In this document: positions 3,385-16,596 of the stretch, piece by piece
Layout: every line of letters starts with the position of its first letter
Numbering within the stretch: position 1 is the stretch's first letter
Assembly (NCBI GenBank): GCA_030649025.1
Contig: JAUSGO010000035.1
Coordinates: 1 to 36,926 of the forward strand
Source of the DNA: a bacterium
Lineage (GTDB): Bacteria > Patescibacteriota > Minisyncoccia > JAUYLV01
DNA: 36,926 nt
Reading direction: 5' to 3'
Position numbers and translations under genes: made by a program
The notes under the pieces: model-generated
The model's database searches: none
Told to the model about the DNA's origin: nothing
Seen by the model: the letters and a program-made list of their open reading frames with translations, nothing else

Positions 3385-5604
3385 CTAGAATGCCATTTTT
3401 GTTTTCTGTCTCCGCAAGAATAATCGCGCCGTGCCGAAAAGGACCGCAAGAAGGGGAATGCCTATCATGATGCCATACTGCACCATTGTCTGCTCGTCCG
3501 ATGAAGCAAACGTGAGAGGGCGGGAGCTTGCGGTTTTTGAGCGGATGGAGATCAATCCCTCGTTTTCCGCAAGCCAGTCTATCGCATTCAAGCCGAAGGC
3601 GATGTTTTCCGGTTTGCCGCCGATGACCTGGTCGGAGAGCATTGAGGAGCTGCCAAGCACGATAGCACGTCCCGTGCCGCCAAGAATATTTTTTATAAGT
3701 ACTGCCACGGTACGCTCTCCAAGCGCGCTCCGGTCCACGGCAAACTCTTGGTTCGGTTGGAGCATAAAACTATTACGCTGTTCTCCCGCGAAGGGCGAAG
3801 TTTTCAGCAATGGTGTTGCTTCGGACGAGACAGCCTTATCTTGCGGAATTTCAAGAGACGCACCCCACGAGTACACGATGCTTTTTAAGTCTTTTGTCAC
3901 CGGGGTGTCTGAAGCGGCTCCCACGCGCGCCCAGAAGGGGTAGGGAAGTACGAAGGTAAGCGGCCCCCCGGTATTGAACTGCACATTTTCGTTCGCGCGT
4001 AGGTCGTATACCACGGACGGATTTATTTTCACGCCAAGCGTTTTTTCAATGAACGCAGGAAGACTGGTGTTTGAAGGAGAAGCGGTAAGCGATCGAAAAT
4101 CAAGCTGTACGCCGTCTACAAGAAAAAATGCCCTGCCTCCTCCCTTGAGATATTCCGTGATCAAATTTTCCTCGTTCTGGCTAAGCGCCTGGGTGGGTCC
4201 CGCAACAACCAGTATATCGGAATATGCAAGGGCGGATGACGAAAGAGAAGTTGCGGTCAGAAGCGATACGCTTTCTATGTCGAAAGCATTTGCAAGTTCT
4301 CCCCGTAAGGCGCTGTAGCCGTCCGTGGAAATTTCATTATGTCCTTCCAAAAAGGCAACAGTTTTTTTCGACTCGTCCGCAAACCGATGGATGAGCCGGG
4401 AGAGCTGATATTCGAAATCAGCCGTTTGCGAAATATACGGAATAACTTCGGCGCGCTTGTCTTTTTGGGAGATTGTAAGCCCGAAAAATCCTTCTTTAAC
4501 CTGAAATTCTCCTTTGCGCACCACGTTGAACTGAATTGGCGGAACGCCGGAATTCACAGCTTCCTGTTTTTCTGTGTCGCTCTCCGGATGCGCTTGCTCG
4601 ATAAGAATTTTGCCTTTCGAGACGCTTCTGTAGTCGTTTAGCATGTCGGTAACATCTCTTTGCGCAACGATGAGCTCTGTCGGAAGATTCTGAGAGGCAT
4701 ACAATTTTATCGTTAAGGGTTCCGCAAGACCGGCAACAAGGGTTTTAGTGGCCTGCGAAAGCGTGTAAAGACGACCCGATGTGAGGTCAAACCGGAAAGA
4801 AATAAAGCTAACTGCGCCATTCCACACTACAACAAGAGCAACAAGCGCCAATACCCAGGAGTTTATGCTGCGCCAAGCGGAAGAAAACCGGGTCAGGCGC
4901 TTGCGCATGAATCCAATGTAGGCAAAGCTCCCGAACAGCGTTGTAAGAGAAAGAAAGTACACCACGTCGCGAAGATCAATAACGCCCCGCGTGATATTTG
5001 AAAAATGCCACAGGATGCTCATCTGCTGCATGAACGAAGAAATGCCAGCCGATACACTGCCGATAGCGGCTTCCCATCCGATGACGATAAAGAAAAAAAT
5101 GATCGCGATAGAAAGAATGAAAGCGACTATCTGGTTTTTGGTGAGCCCCGATGCAAAAAATCCTATTGCGCAAAGTCCCGAGACCAAAAACACGGTACCA
5201 AGGTACTGCGCCGCAACAAGCCCCCAATCGAAGCTTCCGAATTTCGCAAGCACCAAAAGTGCGGGCAGTGTTGCGAACACTCCCAACATGATTGTTGCAA
5301 ATGCTCCCAGATACTTGCCCAAAAGATATTGCGCGGGGCTGACGGGTTGGGAAAGAAATACCTCGCTCGTGCCCTCCTTCTCGTCAGCCGCAAGAGACCG
5401 CATGGTGATGGCAGGAACGAGGAATAAAAGCAGCCAGGGAAGGAAATTAAAGAGGGGACGCAGTGAAGCTTCGCTTACCACAAGCGTGGAGCGGAAGTAG
5501 AAGAAAAACACAAGCCCCAAAAATACCACCAGGATAATATATCCCCCCGGATGGTCGAAGTGTGATTTCAGTTCTCTTTTTGCGAATGTGAAAATAGATT
5601 TCAT
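3385..5604 (-). CDS. Fused GldF-GldG-type ABC transporter permease/auxiliary protein
   Basis: A 739-residue protein. Residues 1-240 are an ABC-2 permease with six hydrophobic segments, starting FAKRELKSHFDHPGGYI and containing the family signature SLAADEKEGTSEVFLSQPVSPAQYLLGKY. A further membrane helix at about 255-275 leads into a GldG-like periplasmic region (FDLTSGRLYTLSQATKTL, then LPPIQFNVV and FLEGHNE-type segments) and a C-terminal membrane helix near 705-725. In Bacteroidota GldF and GldG are separate proteins needed, with GldA, for gliding; homologues elsewhere are exporters of unknown cargo. Here both parts are one chain. It starts 4 bases after the ATPase gene, so the two are one operon. 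The ends match the standard ends of both families. Confidence 0.85.
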   Translation of the reverse strand: MKSIFTFAKRELKSHFDHPGGYIILVVFLGLVFFFYFRSTLVVSEASLRPLFNFLPWLLLFLVPAITMRSLAADEKEGTSEVFLSQPVSPAQYLLGKYLGAFATIMLGVFATLPALLVLAKFGSFDWGLVAAQYLGTVFLVSGLCAIGFFASGLTKNQIVAFILSIAIIFFFIVIGWEAAIGSVSAGISSFMQQMSILWHFSNITRGVIDLRDVVYFLSLTTLFGSFAYIGFMRKRLTRFSSAWRSINSWVLALVALVVVWNGAVSFISFRFDLTSGRLYTLSQATKTLVAGLAEPLTIKLYASQNLPTELIVAQRDVTDMLNDYRSVSKGKILIEQAHPESDTEKQEAVNSGVPPIQFNVVRKGEFQVKEGFFGLTISQKDKRAEVIPYISQTADFEYQLSRLIHRFADESKKTVAFLEGHNEISTDGYSALRGELANAFDIESVSLLTATSLSSSALAYSDILVVAGPTQALSQNEENLITEYLKGGGRAFFLVDGVQLDFRSLTASPSNTSLPAFIEKTLGVKINPSVVYDLRANENVQFNTGGPLTFVLPYPFWARVGAASDTPVTKDLKSIVYSWGASLEIPQDKAVSSEATPLLKTSPFAGEQRNSFMLQPNQEFAVDRSALGERTVAVLIKNILGGTGRAIVLGSSSMLSDQVIGGKPENIAFGLNAIDWLAENEGLISIRSKTASSRPLTFASSDEQTMVQYGIMIGIPLLAVLFGTARLFLRRQKTKMAF

Positions 5605-5608
5605 AGGG

Positions 5609-6523
5609 TCATTTGGTCAATTCTCTGAACACATTTTCGAGGCTCACTGTTTCGCGTGCGAGTTCCCAGAGTTCCACATTTTTTTCTTTCGCAAGTGCCA
5701 TAATGTTCGAGCGAATGTCGCCTACGGCTTCAATATAAAAGCGCGTGCGCCCATTTTCGGTTGGCTGGGTCCGAATGACCTTACTTTCCGGGATAGCTTT
5801 CTCAATGATTTGAGCATCCATGTTTCCTGCAAACTCCGCATGAATAACCGTTTTAGTACCGCGATGGGCAAGTTCTTCAACCGAGCTGTCGCTTACCAGG
5901 GAGCCGTGCGAGATGATGATGACGCGGCTTGCCATAGCTTCCACTTCTTGCAGAACGTGGGTTGAGATGATAACGGTGCGTTCTTTGCCAATATCACGGA
6001 TAAGCGCGCGTATCTCGTGTCTCTGATTCGGATCAAGCCCCTCGGTTGGCTCGTCCAAAATAAGCACCTTGGGGTCTGCAAGGATGGCCTGCGCCAAGCC
6101 TACGCGCTGATGATAGCCCTTGGAAAGCTCTCCAATAGGCCGCCAATATACGCTTTCAATTCCTGTCTTTTTCACTGATTCGCGTATTGCTATTTCTTTT
6201 TTTTCACTCTTAAGGCCTCGCAGGTCGGCAATAAGTTCAAGATATTCCGCAACGAGCATGTCTTCATCTAGAGGATTGTTCTCCGGCAGATATCCGATAT
6301 ACGTTTTTGCAGCGATTGGATTTTGATTTATCGGCACGCCATCAAACAATATCTTTCCGCTGTCAGGCTCGAATACCTGGGCGAGCATCCGCATAGTGGT
6401 CGTCTTGCCCGCCCCGTTCGGTCCTAAAAGTGCTACCACAGAGCCGTCACCAATCTCAAAAGAAAGTCCGTTCACGGCCTTCACTTCCCCGAATGATTTT
6501 TTGAGGTATTCAATACTTATCAT
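5609..6523 (-). CDS. gldA: GldA-type ABC transporter ATP-binding protein
   Basis: A 304-residue ATPase of the ABC-2 exporter class. Walker A is GPNGAGKTT near residues 34-42, the ABC signature is LSKGYHQRVGLAQ, and Walker B is VLILDEPTEGLDP; the H-loop lies in VIISTHVLQE. A C-terminal domain of about 85 residues is typical of CcmA/NatA/GldA proteins. It powers the fused permease encoded directly downstream. It is probably the first gene of the operon, since a good promoter lies 30-55 bases upstream. The GldA name is by context; the sequence alone supports an ABC-2 family ATPase. Confidence 0.85.
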   Translation of the reverse strand: MISIEYLKKSFGEVKAVNGLSFEIGDGSVVALLGPNGAGKTTTMRMLAQVFEPDSGKILFDGVPINQNPIAAKTYIGYLPENNPLDEDMLVAEYLELIADLRGLKSEKKEIAIRESVKKTGIESVYWRPIGELSKGYHQRVGLAQAILADPKVLILDEPTEGLDPNQRHEIRALIRDIGKERTVIISTHVLQEVEAMASRVIIISHGSLVSDSSVEELAHRGTKTVIHAEFAGNMDAQIIEKAIPESKVIRTQPTENGRTRFYIEAVGDIRSNIMALAKEKNVELWELARETVSLENVFRELTK

Positions 6524-7384: not shown

Positions 7385-8026
7385 TTATGGGGGACACACA
7401 AAGAATTGGAGTATCCCGGCTCTTTCAAGCTCCAGGATAAGTTCTTTTTGGTCATCGTTGTCCTGCAGGTACAGCGCGCGCTTTTGGGCGGGCGACAGAG
7501 GAACGCTTCCGTGCTTGGCGTTATCCCGATACATCAGGGCATCATAATAGTCCGCAAGCGCCAAGAGACGGGCATATCTATTGAACATGGCATTGGTCTC
7601 TTCGGTATAATTCGGTGACGGTACGGGAAGTACGGCGGGATACGGCCTTTTGCCGAATTGGTGATGCCGCACCATGATCTGCGCCGTCCAGTCGAAGATG
7701 CTCTGTAGCATATTCCAGCCGTTCATGACATGCGGTTCCATTATTTTGTAATCTTCTTCGGTGAATTTTTCCGTTTTGGTAAGCACATCCGGATCTATAG
7801 GACCCTTGCCAATGTCGTGAAGAAGTCCGGGCCAGAGAGCAGCTTTTGCATCAAGGCCGAGAAACTCCGCGATGCGGCTGAATAATACCCCAACGCGTAT
7901 GGAATGACGGGCTGTCGGCTCGTGGTATTCCCAAAGTATCCGCAGTTGCTTCCGAATGAATGCCTGATGCTCTTCTTTAATGCCAGAGCGCCCAAGCGCA
8001 TCGTTAAGCATTTGCTCCTCGTTCAT
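7385..8026 (-). CDS. HD-domain metal-dependent phosphohydrolase
   Basis: A 213-residue protein. The HD signature is visible as TARHSIRVG, LLHDIGKG (His-Asp pair), PHVMNGWNML and VRHHQFG, followed by LALADYYDAL, a segment typical of HDIG and HD-GYP-like domains. Such proteins hydrolyse phosphomonoesters, cyclic dinucleotides or (p)ppGpp. The GYP residues of true cyclic-di-GMP phosphodiesterases are not obvious, so the substrate is open. The start has a strong Shine-Dalgarno sequence (AAGGAG, 6-7 bases before the ATG). It is the first gene of an operon with the isochorismatase-like hydrolase. Confidence 0.8.
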   Translation of the reverse strand: MNEEQMLNDALGRSGIKEEHQAFIRKQLRILWEYHEPTARHSIRVGVLFSRIAEFLGLDAKAALWPGLLHDIGKGPIDPDVLTKTEKFTEEDYKIMEPHVMNGWNMLQSIFDWTAQIMVRHHQFGKRPYPAVLPVPSPNYTEETNAMFNRYARLLALADYYDALMYRDNAKHGSVPLSPAQKRALYLQDNDDQKELILELERAGILQFFVCPP

Positions 8027-8085: not shown

Positions 8086-8149
8086 CATATACTCTACGAT
8101 CCGGAACTTCAGATATGTAGGAGTTATGATGCCCTTAACTAAAAAATCC

Positions 8150-8174
8150 AATCATGACTAAATTGGTCAAGATT
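8150..8174. promoter_or_regulatory. IscR type-1-like operator, copy 1 (dehydrogenase-like gene)
   Basis: A 25-bp imperfect palindrome with left arm AATCATGACTAA and core GACTAAATTGGTC, one base away from the IscR type-1 core GACTRWWWYAGTC. It lies about 47 bp before a -10 element (TATACT at 8209-8214) of the gene starting at 8241. An ATG inside the site (8154) opens a 12-codon frame (MTKLVKIKIYFL) that stops at 8192. Confidence 0.7.
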
Positions 8175-8240
8175 AAAATCTATTTTCTGTAGAAAAAGAA
8201 AAATATGCTATACTTAAATAATAAATTTATCATAACAAGC

Positions 8241-9221
8241 ATGCACAAGAAAATCGCTTTTTTCGAAGTGACGGCGTGGGAAAAAGAATGGCTGGTGAAG
8301 AATCTGGGCGGATTTGAGCCGAAGTTTTACAACTCGGCACTTAACGAAGAACACATTCCCCCCGAGCGGCACTTTCAGGCCATTTCTGTCGGCGAAGGGT
8401 CGTTTCTCACGAACGCTGTTCTTGAGGCGTTTTCGCATCTTGAACTTATAGTGATTCGTGGGAGGGAATTTGGGAATATTGACCTTGTCTCATGCCGCAA
8501 TAAAAAAATCATGGTTTGCCGTGCTCCGACGTATGCGGTGCATGCAGTGGCGGAATTTACATTTGCCCTCCTGCTTATGTTATCGCGCAGAGTTTGCGAA
8601 GCGGTCTTGCGCCAGAAAACAGGTAGCGATGCTACGCTTGATCGCCTGCGCGGGTTCGATCTTTACGGCAAGACGCTAGGAGTCTTGGGCACAGGCAACA
8701 TTGGAAGCGCGGTTATTCGCATCGCAAAGGGTTTTGGAATGAAGGTAATCGCGTGGAATCCGAAACAGAATTTACAGCTTGCCTCCGAGCTTGGTTTTGC
8801 GTATATGCCGTTTTTATCGGTTCTTGCGCATGCAGATGTCCTGACCATTCATTTGCCGCATGTGCAGGGTGGCGTCGGTCAAACTCACCACCTTCTTAAC
8901 CGGGAAGCTCTCACGCAGATGAAACGCGGGTCTTTGCTGATCAACACCTCCGGTGCCGATATTATTGATAACGATGCACTGGGAAATTTACTACAAGAAG
9001 GGGTTCTTGCGGGCGCTGCTCTTGATGTTGAGCCCGGTACTCTGCGAGAAGATTTTTTGCGGCAGGAGCGCTTTATTATAACTCCGCGTATGGCATTCAA
9101 CACGCAGGAAACCCTGGAGCATCTTCTGCGGGCAACAACGGAGAACATTCACGCGTATTTTCGGGGATTTCCGCAGCATACGGTGGGGCAGAGTGCTCCA
9201 GCGGAGCATTCTGCGGGGTGA
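8241..9221 (+). CDS. D-2-hydroxyacid dehydrogenase-like protein, probable pseudoenzyme
   Basis: A protein of 326 residues from the ATG at 8241; the frame stays open to 8205, but the added 12 residues do not look native. The fold is that of NAD-dependent 2-hydroxyacid dehydrogenases: substrate domain at about 1-100 and 285-310, and Rossmann domain with GVLGTGNIGSA at 147-157. The family's catalytic Arg, normally in an NT(S/A)RG motif, is Gly238 here (INTSGAD). The catalytic His, normally in a TPH motif, is Arg283 (TPRMAF). Only the Glu region (LDVEP) may remain. NAD binding looks intact, dehydrogenase chemistry does not. The gene follows an IscR-type operator, so it may act as a cofactor sensor or binding partner in the Fe-S regulon. 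Confidence 0.8.
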   Translation: MHKKIAFFEVTAWEKEWLVKNLGGFEPKFYNSALNEEHIPPERHFQAISVGEGSFLTNAVLEAFSHLELIVIRGREFGNIDLVSCRNKKIMVCRAPTYAVHAVAEFTFALLLMLSRRVCEAVLRQKTGSDATLDRLRGFDLYGKTLGVLGTGNIGSAVIRIAKGFGMKVIAWNPKQNLQLASELGFAYMPFLSVLAHADVLTIHLPHVQGGVGQTHHLLNREALTQMKRGSLLINTSGADIIDNDALGNLLQEGVLAGAALDVEPGTLREDFLRQERFIITPRMAFNTQETLEHLLRATTENIHAYFRGFPQHTVGQSAPAEHSAG

Positions 9222-16021: not shown

Positions 16022-16414
16022 ATGAAAATCACCACGAGAGGTTTTTATGCGGTAGAGGTTATGCGGGCATTAGCTTCGTGGGATAAGAGCTTGCCTATGT
16101 CCATTGCGGACATCGAGGAGAAAACGGGGATACCACGAGATTATATCGCAAGACTTCTTCTTCGTCTGAAACATGCGGATCTTGCCGAGAGCTTTCGGGG
16201 AAACGCGGGAGGATATCGCATCGCAAAAAAACCAAAAGATATATCTCTTGTTGATGTCTTTACTGCCGTAGGGGAGGATATCGCCCCATGGCCCGCAACC
16301 CCCCGGTCCTACAAGAGACGTCCGCTCATTTGTCCCATACATCCCGTTTGGCAAAGACTGTATACTACGAATAAGTCGTTTCTCGAGAAGACGTCTCTTA
16401 CCGATTTCTTGTAA
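16022..16414 (+). CDS. Rrf2/IscR-family transcriptional regulator lacking two cluster ligands
   Basis: A 130-residue protein that aligns with E. coli IscR without gaps through residue 110. The winged helix-turn-helix (ADIEEKTGIPRDYIARLLLRLK) and wing (FRGNAGGY, residues 58-65) are intact. Of the IscR cluster ligands Cys92, Cys98, Cys104 and His107, only Cys104 and His107 remain; positions 92 and 98 are Ala and Lys. Position 43, Glu in IscR, is Ala. In E. coli, Glu43 keeps the apo-protein off type-1 sites (from memory of structural work). So this protein may bind type-1 operators without a cluster. It ends shortly after the ligand region and lacks the E. coli tail. It sits directly before sufCB and is probably self-regulated. 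Confidence 0.9.
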   Translation: MKITTRGFYAVEVMRALASWDKSLPMSIADIEEKTGIPRDYIARLLLRLKHADLAESFRGNAGGYRIAKKPKDISLVDVFTAVGEDIAPWPATPRSYKRRPLICPIHPVWQRLYTTNKSFLEKTSLTDFL

Positions 16415-16476
16415 TTTTATTCTTGCCCAAAAGATACGCTATTGCCGATATTCTTTCCAAGGCCCTCTCCCAATCC

Positions 16477-16501
16477 AATCATGACTAAATTGGTCAAGAT
16501 T
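16477..16501. promoter_or_regulatory. IscR type-1-like operator, copy 3 (upstream of sufC)
   Basis: Core GACTAAATTGGTC with arms AATCA and AAGATT, identical over all 25 bp to copy 1. Its internal ATG (16481) opens a 23-codon frame starting MTKLVKIKK that stops at 16552, 23 bases before the sufC start. A possible -10 (TATATT) lies at 16542-16547. Confidence 0.75.
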
Positions 16502-16571
16502 AAAAAATTGATAAGCTCGTACTCGAGAGCGATACGTAGGATATATTTTTAAATCCCATCTTTAACGCTTC

Positions 16572-16596
16572 AATCATGACTAAATTAGTCAACATT
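16572..16596. promoter_or_regulatory. IscR type-1-like operator, copy 4 (overlaps the sufC start)
   Basis: Core GACTAAATTAGTC matches GACTRWWWYAGTC exactly. The ATG of sufC (16576-16578) lies inside the left arm, so the operator encodes the first seven residues of SufC (MTKLVNI). Bound regulator here could block elongation. Confidence 0.75.

What the first reader, a model, noticed from the sequence alone, without database searches (positions are those of the whole stretch)
8241..9221. NAD-binding pseudoenzyme inside the Fe-S regulon
The 2-hydroxyacid dehydrogenase fold keeps its GxGxxG motif, but the catalytic Arg is Gly238 and the catalytic His is Arg283. Copy 1 of the operator is upstream. 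Loss of both residues with an otherwise well-kept frame points to a new role, such as a redox or NAD(H) sensor or a protein partner (compare CtBP-type co-repressors, which use the same fold).
Basis: partly seen in the sequence, partly recalled or inferred. Interest (0 to 1): 0.65.

Follow-up and report, generated by a model that had tools for sequence, protein, structure and literature searches.

The report
Dead lactate dehydrogenase beside iron-sulfur operator
A small bacterium carries a relative of the fermentation enzyme D-lactate dehydrogenase that has lost the amino acids needed for its reaction but kept its overall shape and most of its cofactor pocket, so it probably now does another job, possibly regulatory.

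Summary
Confirmed: 8241-9221 encodes a D-lactate-dehydrogenase-type 2-hydroxyacid dehydrogenase with catalytic Arg→Gly238 and His→Arg283. The substrate-loop Gly, the Gly after the Arg and the NAD-ribose Asp are also lost in both. Frame, predicted fold (pLDDT 94), GxGxxG and other cofactor residues are kept. Between the orthologues the active-site segments drift (38% identity; 0 of 493 matched canonical pairs as low), while lid domain and C-terminal tail are conserved somewhat more than usual. It is probably not a working 2-hydroxyacid dehydrogenase.

Only partly supported: "inside the Fe-S regulon". The operator is real but absent upstream of the orthologue, whose genome has the same rrf2-suf cluster and operators; the copy here looks recent. 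CtBP is a poor comparison, being described as an active dehydrogenase. I favour a dinucleotide-binding regulatory or scaffold protein; an altered enzyme remains possible.

The parts
8241..9221 (+). gene for the catalytically degenerate D-lactate-dehydrogenase-like protein (326 aa)
8154..8170 (+). operator core ATGACTAAATTGGTCAA (extended repeat 8145-8178)
   Evidence: 34/34 identical to 16472-16505
8206..8214 (+). extended -10-like TGCTATACT, inferred promoter; operator centre lies about 59 nt upstream of the inferred transcription start
   Evidence: read from sequence; not in the consensus scan's list, so inference only
8454..8474 (+). substrate loop, residues 72-78 IRGREFG; the invariant loop Gly position (76) is E, orthologue R
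8688..8705 (+). GTGNIG dinucleotide-binding motif, residues 150-155, kept
8757..8759 (+). Asn173 at the NAD-ribose Asp position (orthologue Ser)
8952..8957 (+). Gly238-Ala239 in place of catalytic Arg-Gly (orthologue His-Pro)
9030..9032 (+). Glu264: possible remnant of the catalytic Glu after a 2-3 residue deletion; alignment ambiguous
9087..9089 (+). Arg283 in place of catalytic His (orthologue also Arg)
9102..9194 (+). C-terminal tail, residues 288-318 (contains AYFRGFPQH), unusually conserved between the two orthologues
7385..8026 (-). divergent HD-domain gene sharing the intergenic region (alternative target of the operator)
3385..6523 (-). GldA-like ATPase and GldF/GldG-like gene, the neighbour shared with the orthologue's contig
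16022..16414 (+). Rrf2-family regulator, presumed reader of the operator

Best explanation
A fermentative-type D-lactate dehydrogenase gene lost its chemistry before the two genera of this family split and was kept as a non-catalytic dinucleotide-binding protein. Shown here by sequence: Arg, His, substrate-loop Gly and the Gly after Arg are lost in both orthologues; GxGxxG, the H/P, N-T and Asp cofactor residues and the whole predicted fold are kept; constraint has moved from the active site towards the lid domain and C-terminal tail. Inferred: it still binds NAD(H) or NADP(H) (the NAD-selecting Asp is Asn or Ser), opens and closes with the cofactor as a dimer, and uses lid and tail as a docking surface for a partner, giving a regulatory or scaffold function. 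In the window's species, and not in the sister genus, its upstream region has acquired the Rrf2 operator, perhaps for activation from about -59.
For: Losses in both orthologues against 185 of 185 (Arg) and 184 of 184 (His) relatives. 57 columns are at least 90% conserved in 68 canonical D-LDHs: 48 are kept in at least one orthologue, 36 in both, 9 lost in both; those nine include the substrate-loop Gly, Arg, Gly239, His, an acidic column next to the catalytic Glu, and the NAD Asp. G150, G152, G155, H204, P206, N235, T236, D262 and Y98 are kept in both. dN/dS about 0.23 (pN 0.35, pS 0.70; synonymous sites near saturation) with intact frames. Constraint shift against 493 canonical pairs matched on non-catalytic identity: catalytic segments 38% versus 68% (no pair as low), lid domain 49% versus 36% (97.8% of pairs at or below), C-terminus 65% versus 49% (96.1%). 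AF2 pLDDT 94.1, pTM 0.90; best structural matches are D-LDHs. Clade of the two 100/100.
Against: No binding or activity data. Only two members found, so the constraint shift rests on one pair, and the 493 control pairs share 67 sequences and are not independent. The cofactor core (129-229) is itself a little less conserved than in controls (50% versus 57%; 6% of pairs as low) and the NAD Asp is lost, so cofactor binding may be weakened. New shared arginines (R75, R283) could serve a changed reaction. No partner is identified.
Confidence: 0.5

Rival explanations
1. A new enzyme rather than a dead one: the cleft was rebuilt (Arg moved from 238 to 283, new R75, N/S173 possibly accepting NADPH) to act on another, probably anionic, substrate.
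For: R283 and R75 are identical in both orthologues and rare in the family; in the orthologue the Arg and His letters are swapped between the two positions (His at 238, Arg at 283). Pseudoenzymes with migrated catalytic residues are described (PMC10211241, abstract and passages).
Against: The two orthologues disagree at 238 (G/H), 239 (A/P), 76 (E/R) and through 256-287 (29% identity versus 65% in matched pairs, 0 of 493 as low), unlike a conserved new active site.
Confidence: 0.25
2. A decaying leftover of D-LDH under relaxed selection, on its way to loss.
For: It changes faster than most neighbouring enzymes: 50% identity versus 72-88% for SufC, SufB, SufS, the GyaR-type paralogue and the ATPase; pair path 1.41 versus 0.46 for the GyaR-type pair.
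Against: Intact frame in two genera with near-saturated synonymous sites and dN/dS about 0.23; identity close to Rrf2 (57%) and SufD (53%) of the same genomes, which are presumably functional; raised conservation in lid and tail.
Confidence: 0.12
3. One reading: a redox or NAD(H) co-sensor that works with the Rrf2 protein, in the way the CysK enzyme works with the Rrf2-family repressor CymR.
For: Operator upstream; both genomes with the protein have an Rrf2 reduced to one of three cluster cysteines while 11 other Rrf2 proteins printed keep three; the CymR-CysK complex is a precedent (PMC2869319 passage).
Against: The operator is not upstream of the orthologue; an Rrf2 with a single Cys can still ligate a cluster (R. 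sphaeroides IscR, PMC4618611 abstract and passages); the co-occurrence is one lineage; being a target of Rrf2 does not imply binding it.
Confidence: 0.1

Closest known systems
Fermentative D-lactate dehydrogenase (LDHD subfamily; e.g. P. aeruginosa 6abj/5z20, F. nucleatum 6abi, E. coli 5z1z)
   Same: Full fold, GxGxxG, most cofactor residues, N-terminal sequence similarity
   Different: Catalytic Arg and His, substrate-loop Gly and NAD-ribose Asp lost; 46 residues from the Arg to the His column where most D-LDH-type rows have 62-75
Plant ANGUSTIFOLIA
   Same: 2HADH relative described as lacking the catalytic residues (PMC6303947 passages)
   Different: Sister of animal CtBP, not of D-LDH; eukaryotic; not compared by sequence here
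2HADH subfamilies X4 and X13
   Same: X4: about half of members have catalytic His replaced by Trp with loss of the Glu; X13 lacks the substrate-loop Gly (PMC6303947 passages)
   Different: Here Arg is also lost and His becomes Arg; relation to X4/X13 not tested
CtBP1/CtBP2
   Same: Same fold (VIA Z about 32); NAD-dependent co-repressors
   Different: Described as having intrinsic dehydrogenase activity (PMC6303947)
CymR-CysK
   Same: Rrf2-family regulator acting in complex with a metabolic enzyme (PMC2869319): a possible working analogy
   Different: CysK is an active O-acetylserine thiol-lyase, not a 2HADH; no complex shown here

Membership tests
D-lactate dehydrogenase (LDHD) as a working enzyme | 2HADH fold with catalytic and NAD-binding domains | tested here: met
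   Pfam; AF2; Foldseek/VIA
D-lactate dehydrogenase (LDHD) as a working enzyme | Catalytic Arg | tested here: not met
   G238; orthologue H; 185 of 185 relatives R
D-lactate dehydrogenase (LDHD) as a working enzyme | Catalytic His | tested here: not met
   R283 in both; 184 of 184 relatives with the column H
D-lactate dehydrogenase (LDHD) as a working enzyme | Catalytic Glu | tested here: inconclusive
   Window has P265 or, shifted by one, E264; orthologue keeps an E
D-lactate dehydrogenase (LDHD) as a working enzyme | Substrate-loop Gly that helps place the substrate | tested here: not met
   E76; orthologue R; 185 of 185 relatives G
D-lactate dehydrogenase (LDHD) as a working enzyme | Conserved Asp in the betaB-alphaD loop (NADH preference) | tested here: not met
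   N173; orthologue S; 183 of 185 relatives D
D-lactate dehydrogenase (LDHD) as a working enzyme | Groups with D-LDHs rather than glyoxylate-reductase type | tested here: met
   Tree of 73: on the 70-row D-LDH side, branch 100/100; position inside unresolved
Rrf2-controlled Fe-S regulon | Operator upstream in the window's genome | tested here: met
Rrf2-controlled Fe-S regulon | Operator conserved upstream of the orthologue | tested here: not met
   0 matches with up to 3 mismatches in 20000 bases of L112
Rrf2-controlled Fe-S regulon | Rrf2 binds the site and alters expression | not testable with these tools
   needs gel shift and transcript data
CtBP/ANGUSTIFOLIA-like non-enzymatic 2HADH | NAD(H)-dependent partner binding | not testable with these tools
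   no complex prediction or binding assay available

The most novel reading that the evidence does not exclude
A bacterial counterpart of CtBP/ANGUSTIFOLIA: a dead D-lactate dehydrogenase that reads NAD(P)H redox state and docks through its lid and tail on a single-cysteine Rrf2 regulator, feeding redox state into Fe-S assembly control, with its own gene recently placed under that regulator.
Probability: 0.08. Interest if true: 0.75.

Novelty: new variant of a known kind. Interest (0 to 1): 0.42.

Why it matters
Catalytically degenerate 2-hydroxyacid dehydrogenases are on record for a plant protein and a few uncharacterised clades (PMC6303947 passages). A clean bacterial case with an orthologue, lost chemistry and shifted constraint gives a small, testable model of how a fermentation enzyme becomes a non-enzymatic protein. 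In the window's genome it is the only D-LDH-type protein found and no L-LDH was found, so annotating it as a lactate dehydrogenase would wrongly credit this organism with lactate fermentation.

Tried and rejected
Start at 8205: rejected, since it overlaps a -10-like element and the orthologue starts at the equivalent of 8241.

CtBP as the model: rejected as closest in kind because CtBP is described as active.

Glyoxylate-reductase origin: rejected; the genome's own GyaR-type paralogue (C31) branches apart at 100/100.

Operator serving the divergent HD gene: cannot be excluded. A TTGACT-17-CATACT site fires towards HD at 8085-8057 (two promoter-like sites found against 2.1 expected, so weak), with the operator further upstream of it.

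More members: 383 genomes of the class gave only the two at E about 1e-201, next 3e-82.

Literature: searches for pseudoenzyme with 2-hydroxyacid dehydrogenase (0 papers), catalytic histidine/ANGUSTIFOLIA/CtBP, imino acid reductase with 2-hydroxyacid dehydrogenase (0), pseudoenzyme/lactate dehydrogenase/NADH sensor and Rrf2/Patescibacteria terms showed nothing on such a bacterial protein in the listings; this is not proof of absence.

Rows dropped: AF2 and tree used 73 rows out of 126 prepared references plus the window (duplicates and close copies left out). Constraint controls used 68 of these, leaving out three glyoxylate-reductase types and the pair itself. Of the hits, 30 came as loci and 51 more were fetched; most hits weaker than about 1e-50, apparently of glyoxylate-reductase type, were not fetched. 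Structure coordinates were not readable, so no active-site distances were measured. The second structure job was not used.

Full report
Observation. The ORF 8241-9221 encodes 326 residues of the D-isomer-specific 2-hydroxyacid dehydrogenase fold (PF02826 6.8e-42, PF00389 5.1e-17). GTGNIG stands at residues 150-155. In the canonical motif N-T-(S/A)-R-G the window reads N-T-S-G238-A239, and in T-P-H it reads T-P-R283. The operator upstream (8154-8170) is one of six copies in the window, far beyond chance (9 both-strand matches versus 0.16 expected); 6 of the 7 exact sites in the 1.23-Mb genome lie in this window.

Orthologues. A profile of the window protein and its best relative found only those two at E about 1e-201 in 383 genomes of the class; the next hit was 3e-82. 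The relative (L003 = L112:264-1229:-, genome G001, same family, different genus) is 50% identical and reads His at 238 and Arg at 283. So His to Arg is shared, and the Arg is lost in both with different letters. The aligned set of 188 rows consists of the window protein, its second copy L001, L003 and 185 relatives: Arg in 185 of 185 relatives, His in 184 of 184 that reach the column, substrate-loop Gly in 185 of 185, the Gly after Arg in 185 of 185 and the NAD Asp in 183 of 185; the two orthologues have lost all of these (smaller sets).

Origin. A 73-row tree puts the pair together at 100/100 within the D-LDH side (70 rows, 100/100), apart from the glyoxylate-reductase type; its exact place among the D-LDHs is unresolved, and the bootstrap had not fully settled. 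G001 also keeps a canonical D-LDH (C39, L113, with R and H). The window's genome has no such copy: PF02826 rings at this gene, at the GyaR-type gene on C31 and weakly at two places on C21, and the L-LDH family PF02866 gives no match.

Selection. The pair has pN 0.35 and pS 0.70, giving dN/dS about 0.23 with synonymous sites near saturation. Identity of 50% compares with 78 (ATPase), 62 (GldG-like), 36 (membrane protein), 57 (Rrf2), 73 (SufC), 88 (SufB), 53 (SufD), 72 (SufS) and 73 (GyaR-type) for other gene pairs of the two genomes: faster than most enzymes, similar to Rrf2 and SufD. Against 493 pairs of canonical D-LDHs matched on identity outside the active site (67 sequences, so not independent), catalytic segments are 38% identical versus 68% (no control pair as low) and 256-287 alone 29% versus 65% (none as low). 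The lid domain is 49% versus 36% (97.8% of pairs at or below) and the C-terminus 65% versus 49% (96.1%). The NAD core 129-229 is 50% versus 57% (6.1% as low) (an overall-identity match with 1161 pairs is similar). Constraint has left the active site and is somewhat raised in lid and tail; the cofactor core is kept but not privileged. This rests on one pair of sequences.

Structure. AlphaFold2 on a 73-sequence alignment gives pLDDT 94.1 and pTM 0.90. Foldseek's best match is P. aeruginosa D-LDH 6abj (E 1.8e-32, TM 0.83); VIA-align gives F. nucleatum D-LDH 6abi Z 35.6, rmsd 3.5 over 312 residues. A shared fold shows no function. Coordinates could not be read, so the geometry of Arg283 and Arg75 is unknown.

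Cofactor. G150, G152, G155, H204, P206, N235, T236, D262 and Y98 are kept in both orthologues. The Asp that in LDHD goes with NADH preference (PMC6303947 passages) is Asn or Ser. Binding of NAD(H) or NADP(H) is plausible but not shown. That the kept helix 100-116 builds the dimer in this fold is recalled, not tested.

Regulation. Operators in the sister genus form the palindrome AAAGTTGACTAAATTAGTCAACTTT, with small variations, around rrf2 and before sufC, in the same rrf2-sufC-sufB-sufD-sufS cluster. Upstream of the orthologue of this gene there is none (0 matches with up to 3 mismatches in 20,000 bases). The window copy is identical over 34 of 34 bases to the one at 16472-16505, more than the other copies share with it (79-85% for three and 71% for the one on the other strand), so it looks like a recent copy. 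At rrf2 the site supplies a -35-like hexamer in both genomes (TTGACC or TTGACT, 17 bases, TATCAT or GATAAT; read), which suggests autorepression. At this gene it sits about 59 nt above an inferred start, a position fit for activation; that is inference. The site could instead serve the divergent HD gene. What the two genomes share around the gene is the divergent GldA-like ATPase and GldF/GldG-like gene; in the window an HD and an isochorismatase-type gene lie between.

Reading. I take the claim 'not a 2-hydroxyacid dehydrogenase by the canonical mechanism' as very likely, a dinucleotide-binding regulatory or scaffold role as the best single explanation (0.5), and an altered enzyme as the main rival (0.25). 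The Rrf2-partner idea has a precedent in CymR-CysK (PMC2869319 passage), and it is notable that both genomes with this protein have an Rrf2 with one of the three cluster cysteines, whereas 11 other Rrf2 proteins printed keep three. But R. sphaeroides IscR holds a cluster with a single Cys (PMC4618611 abstract and passages), and the missing operator in the sister genus weakens the link.

Novelty. Catalytically degenerate members of this fold are on record: ANGUSTIFOLIA lacks the catalytic residues, about half of subfamily X4 lost His and Glu, and X13 lost the loop Gly (PMC6303947 passages). This is a new variant of a known kind.

Noticed in passing
window 16022-16414: The Rrf2 protein keeps one Cys (ICPIHPVW) of the three cluster-ligand cysteines; its G001 orthologue is the same, while 11 other Rrf2 proteins printed (L070, L175-L184) keep three. 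A single-Cys Rrf2 with a cluster is known from R. sphaeroides.
   Followed up: partly
window 16576-16592: The operator copy at sufC coincides with its first codons (ATG ACT AAA TTA GTC AAC), so operator and start codon overlap; in G001 the site lies upstream of the sufC start.
   Followed up: partly
window 8145-8178 and 16472-16505: 34-base exact duplication of operator plus flanks, longer than the shared core of the other copies.
   Followed up: partly
L118 1501-1517 (G000:C2:32075-32091): A seventh exact operator copy outside the window, apparently between converging 3' ends beside a PriA-like ORF, with no obvious target (the PriA name is recalled, not searched).
   Followed up: no
L125 about 1501-1517 (G000:C29:38813-38829): A one-mismatch, palindromic operator just downstream of a 173-aa ORF.
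   Followed up: no
L112 about 1230-1435: Upstream of the orthologue there are three TACGAAT repeats and ATTCGCGAAT instead of the Rrf2 operator, perhaps another regulator's sites.
   Followed up: no
L114 1-413: A second G001 contig begins with 413 bases 94.7% identical to the 3' part of the orthologue and what follows: an assembly overlap with strain variation or a partial duplicate.
   Followed up: partly
L131, L132 (G001:C16:14225-14812): Two further operator copies in G001, 573 bases apart, lie beside ORFs of 304 and 125 aa that are not obvious Fe-S genes.
   Followed up: no
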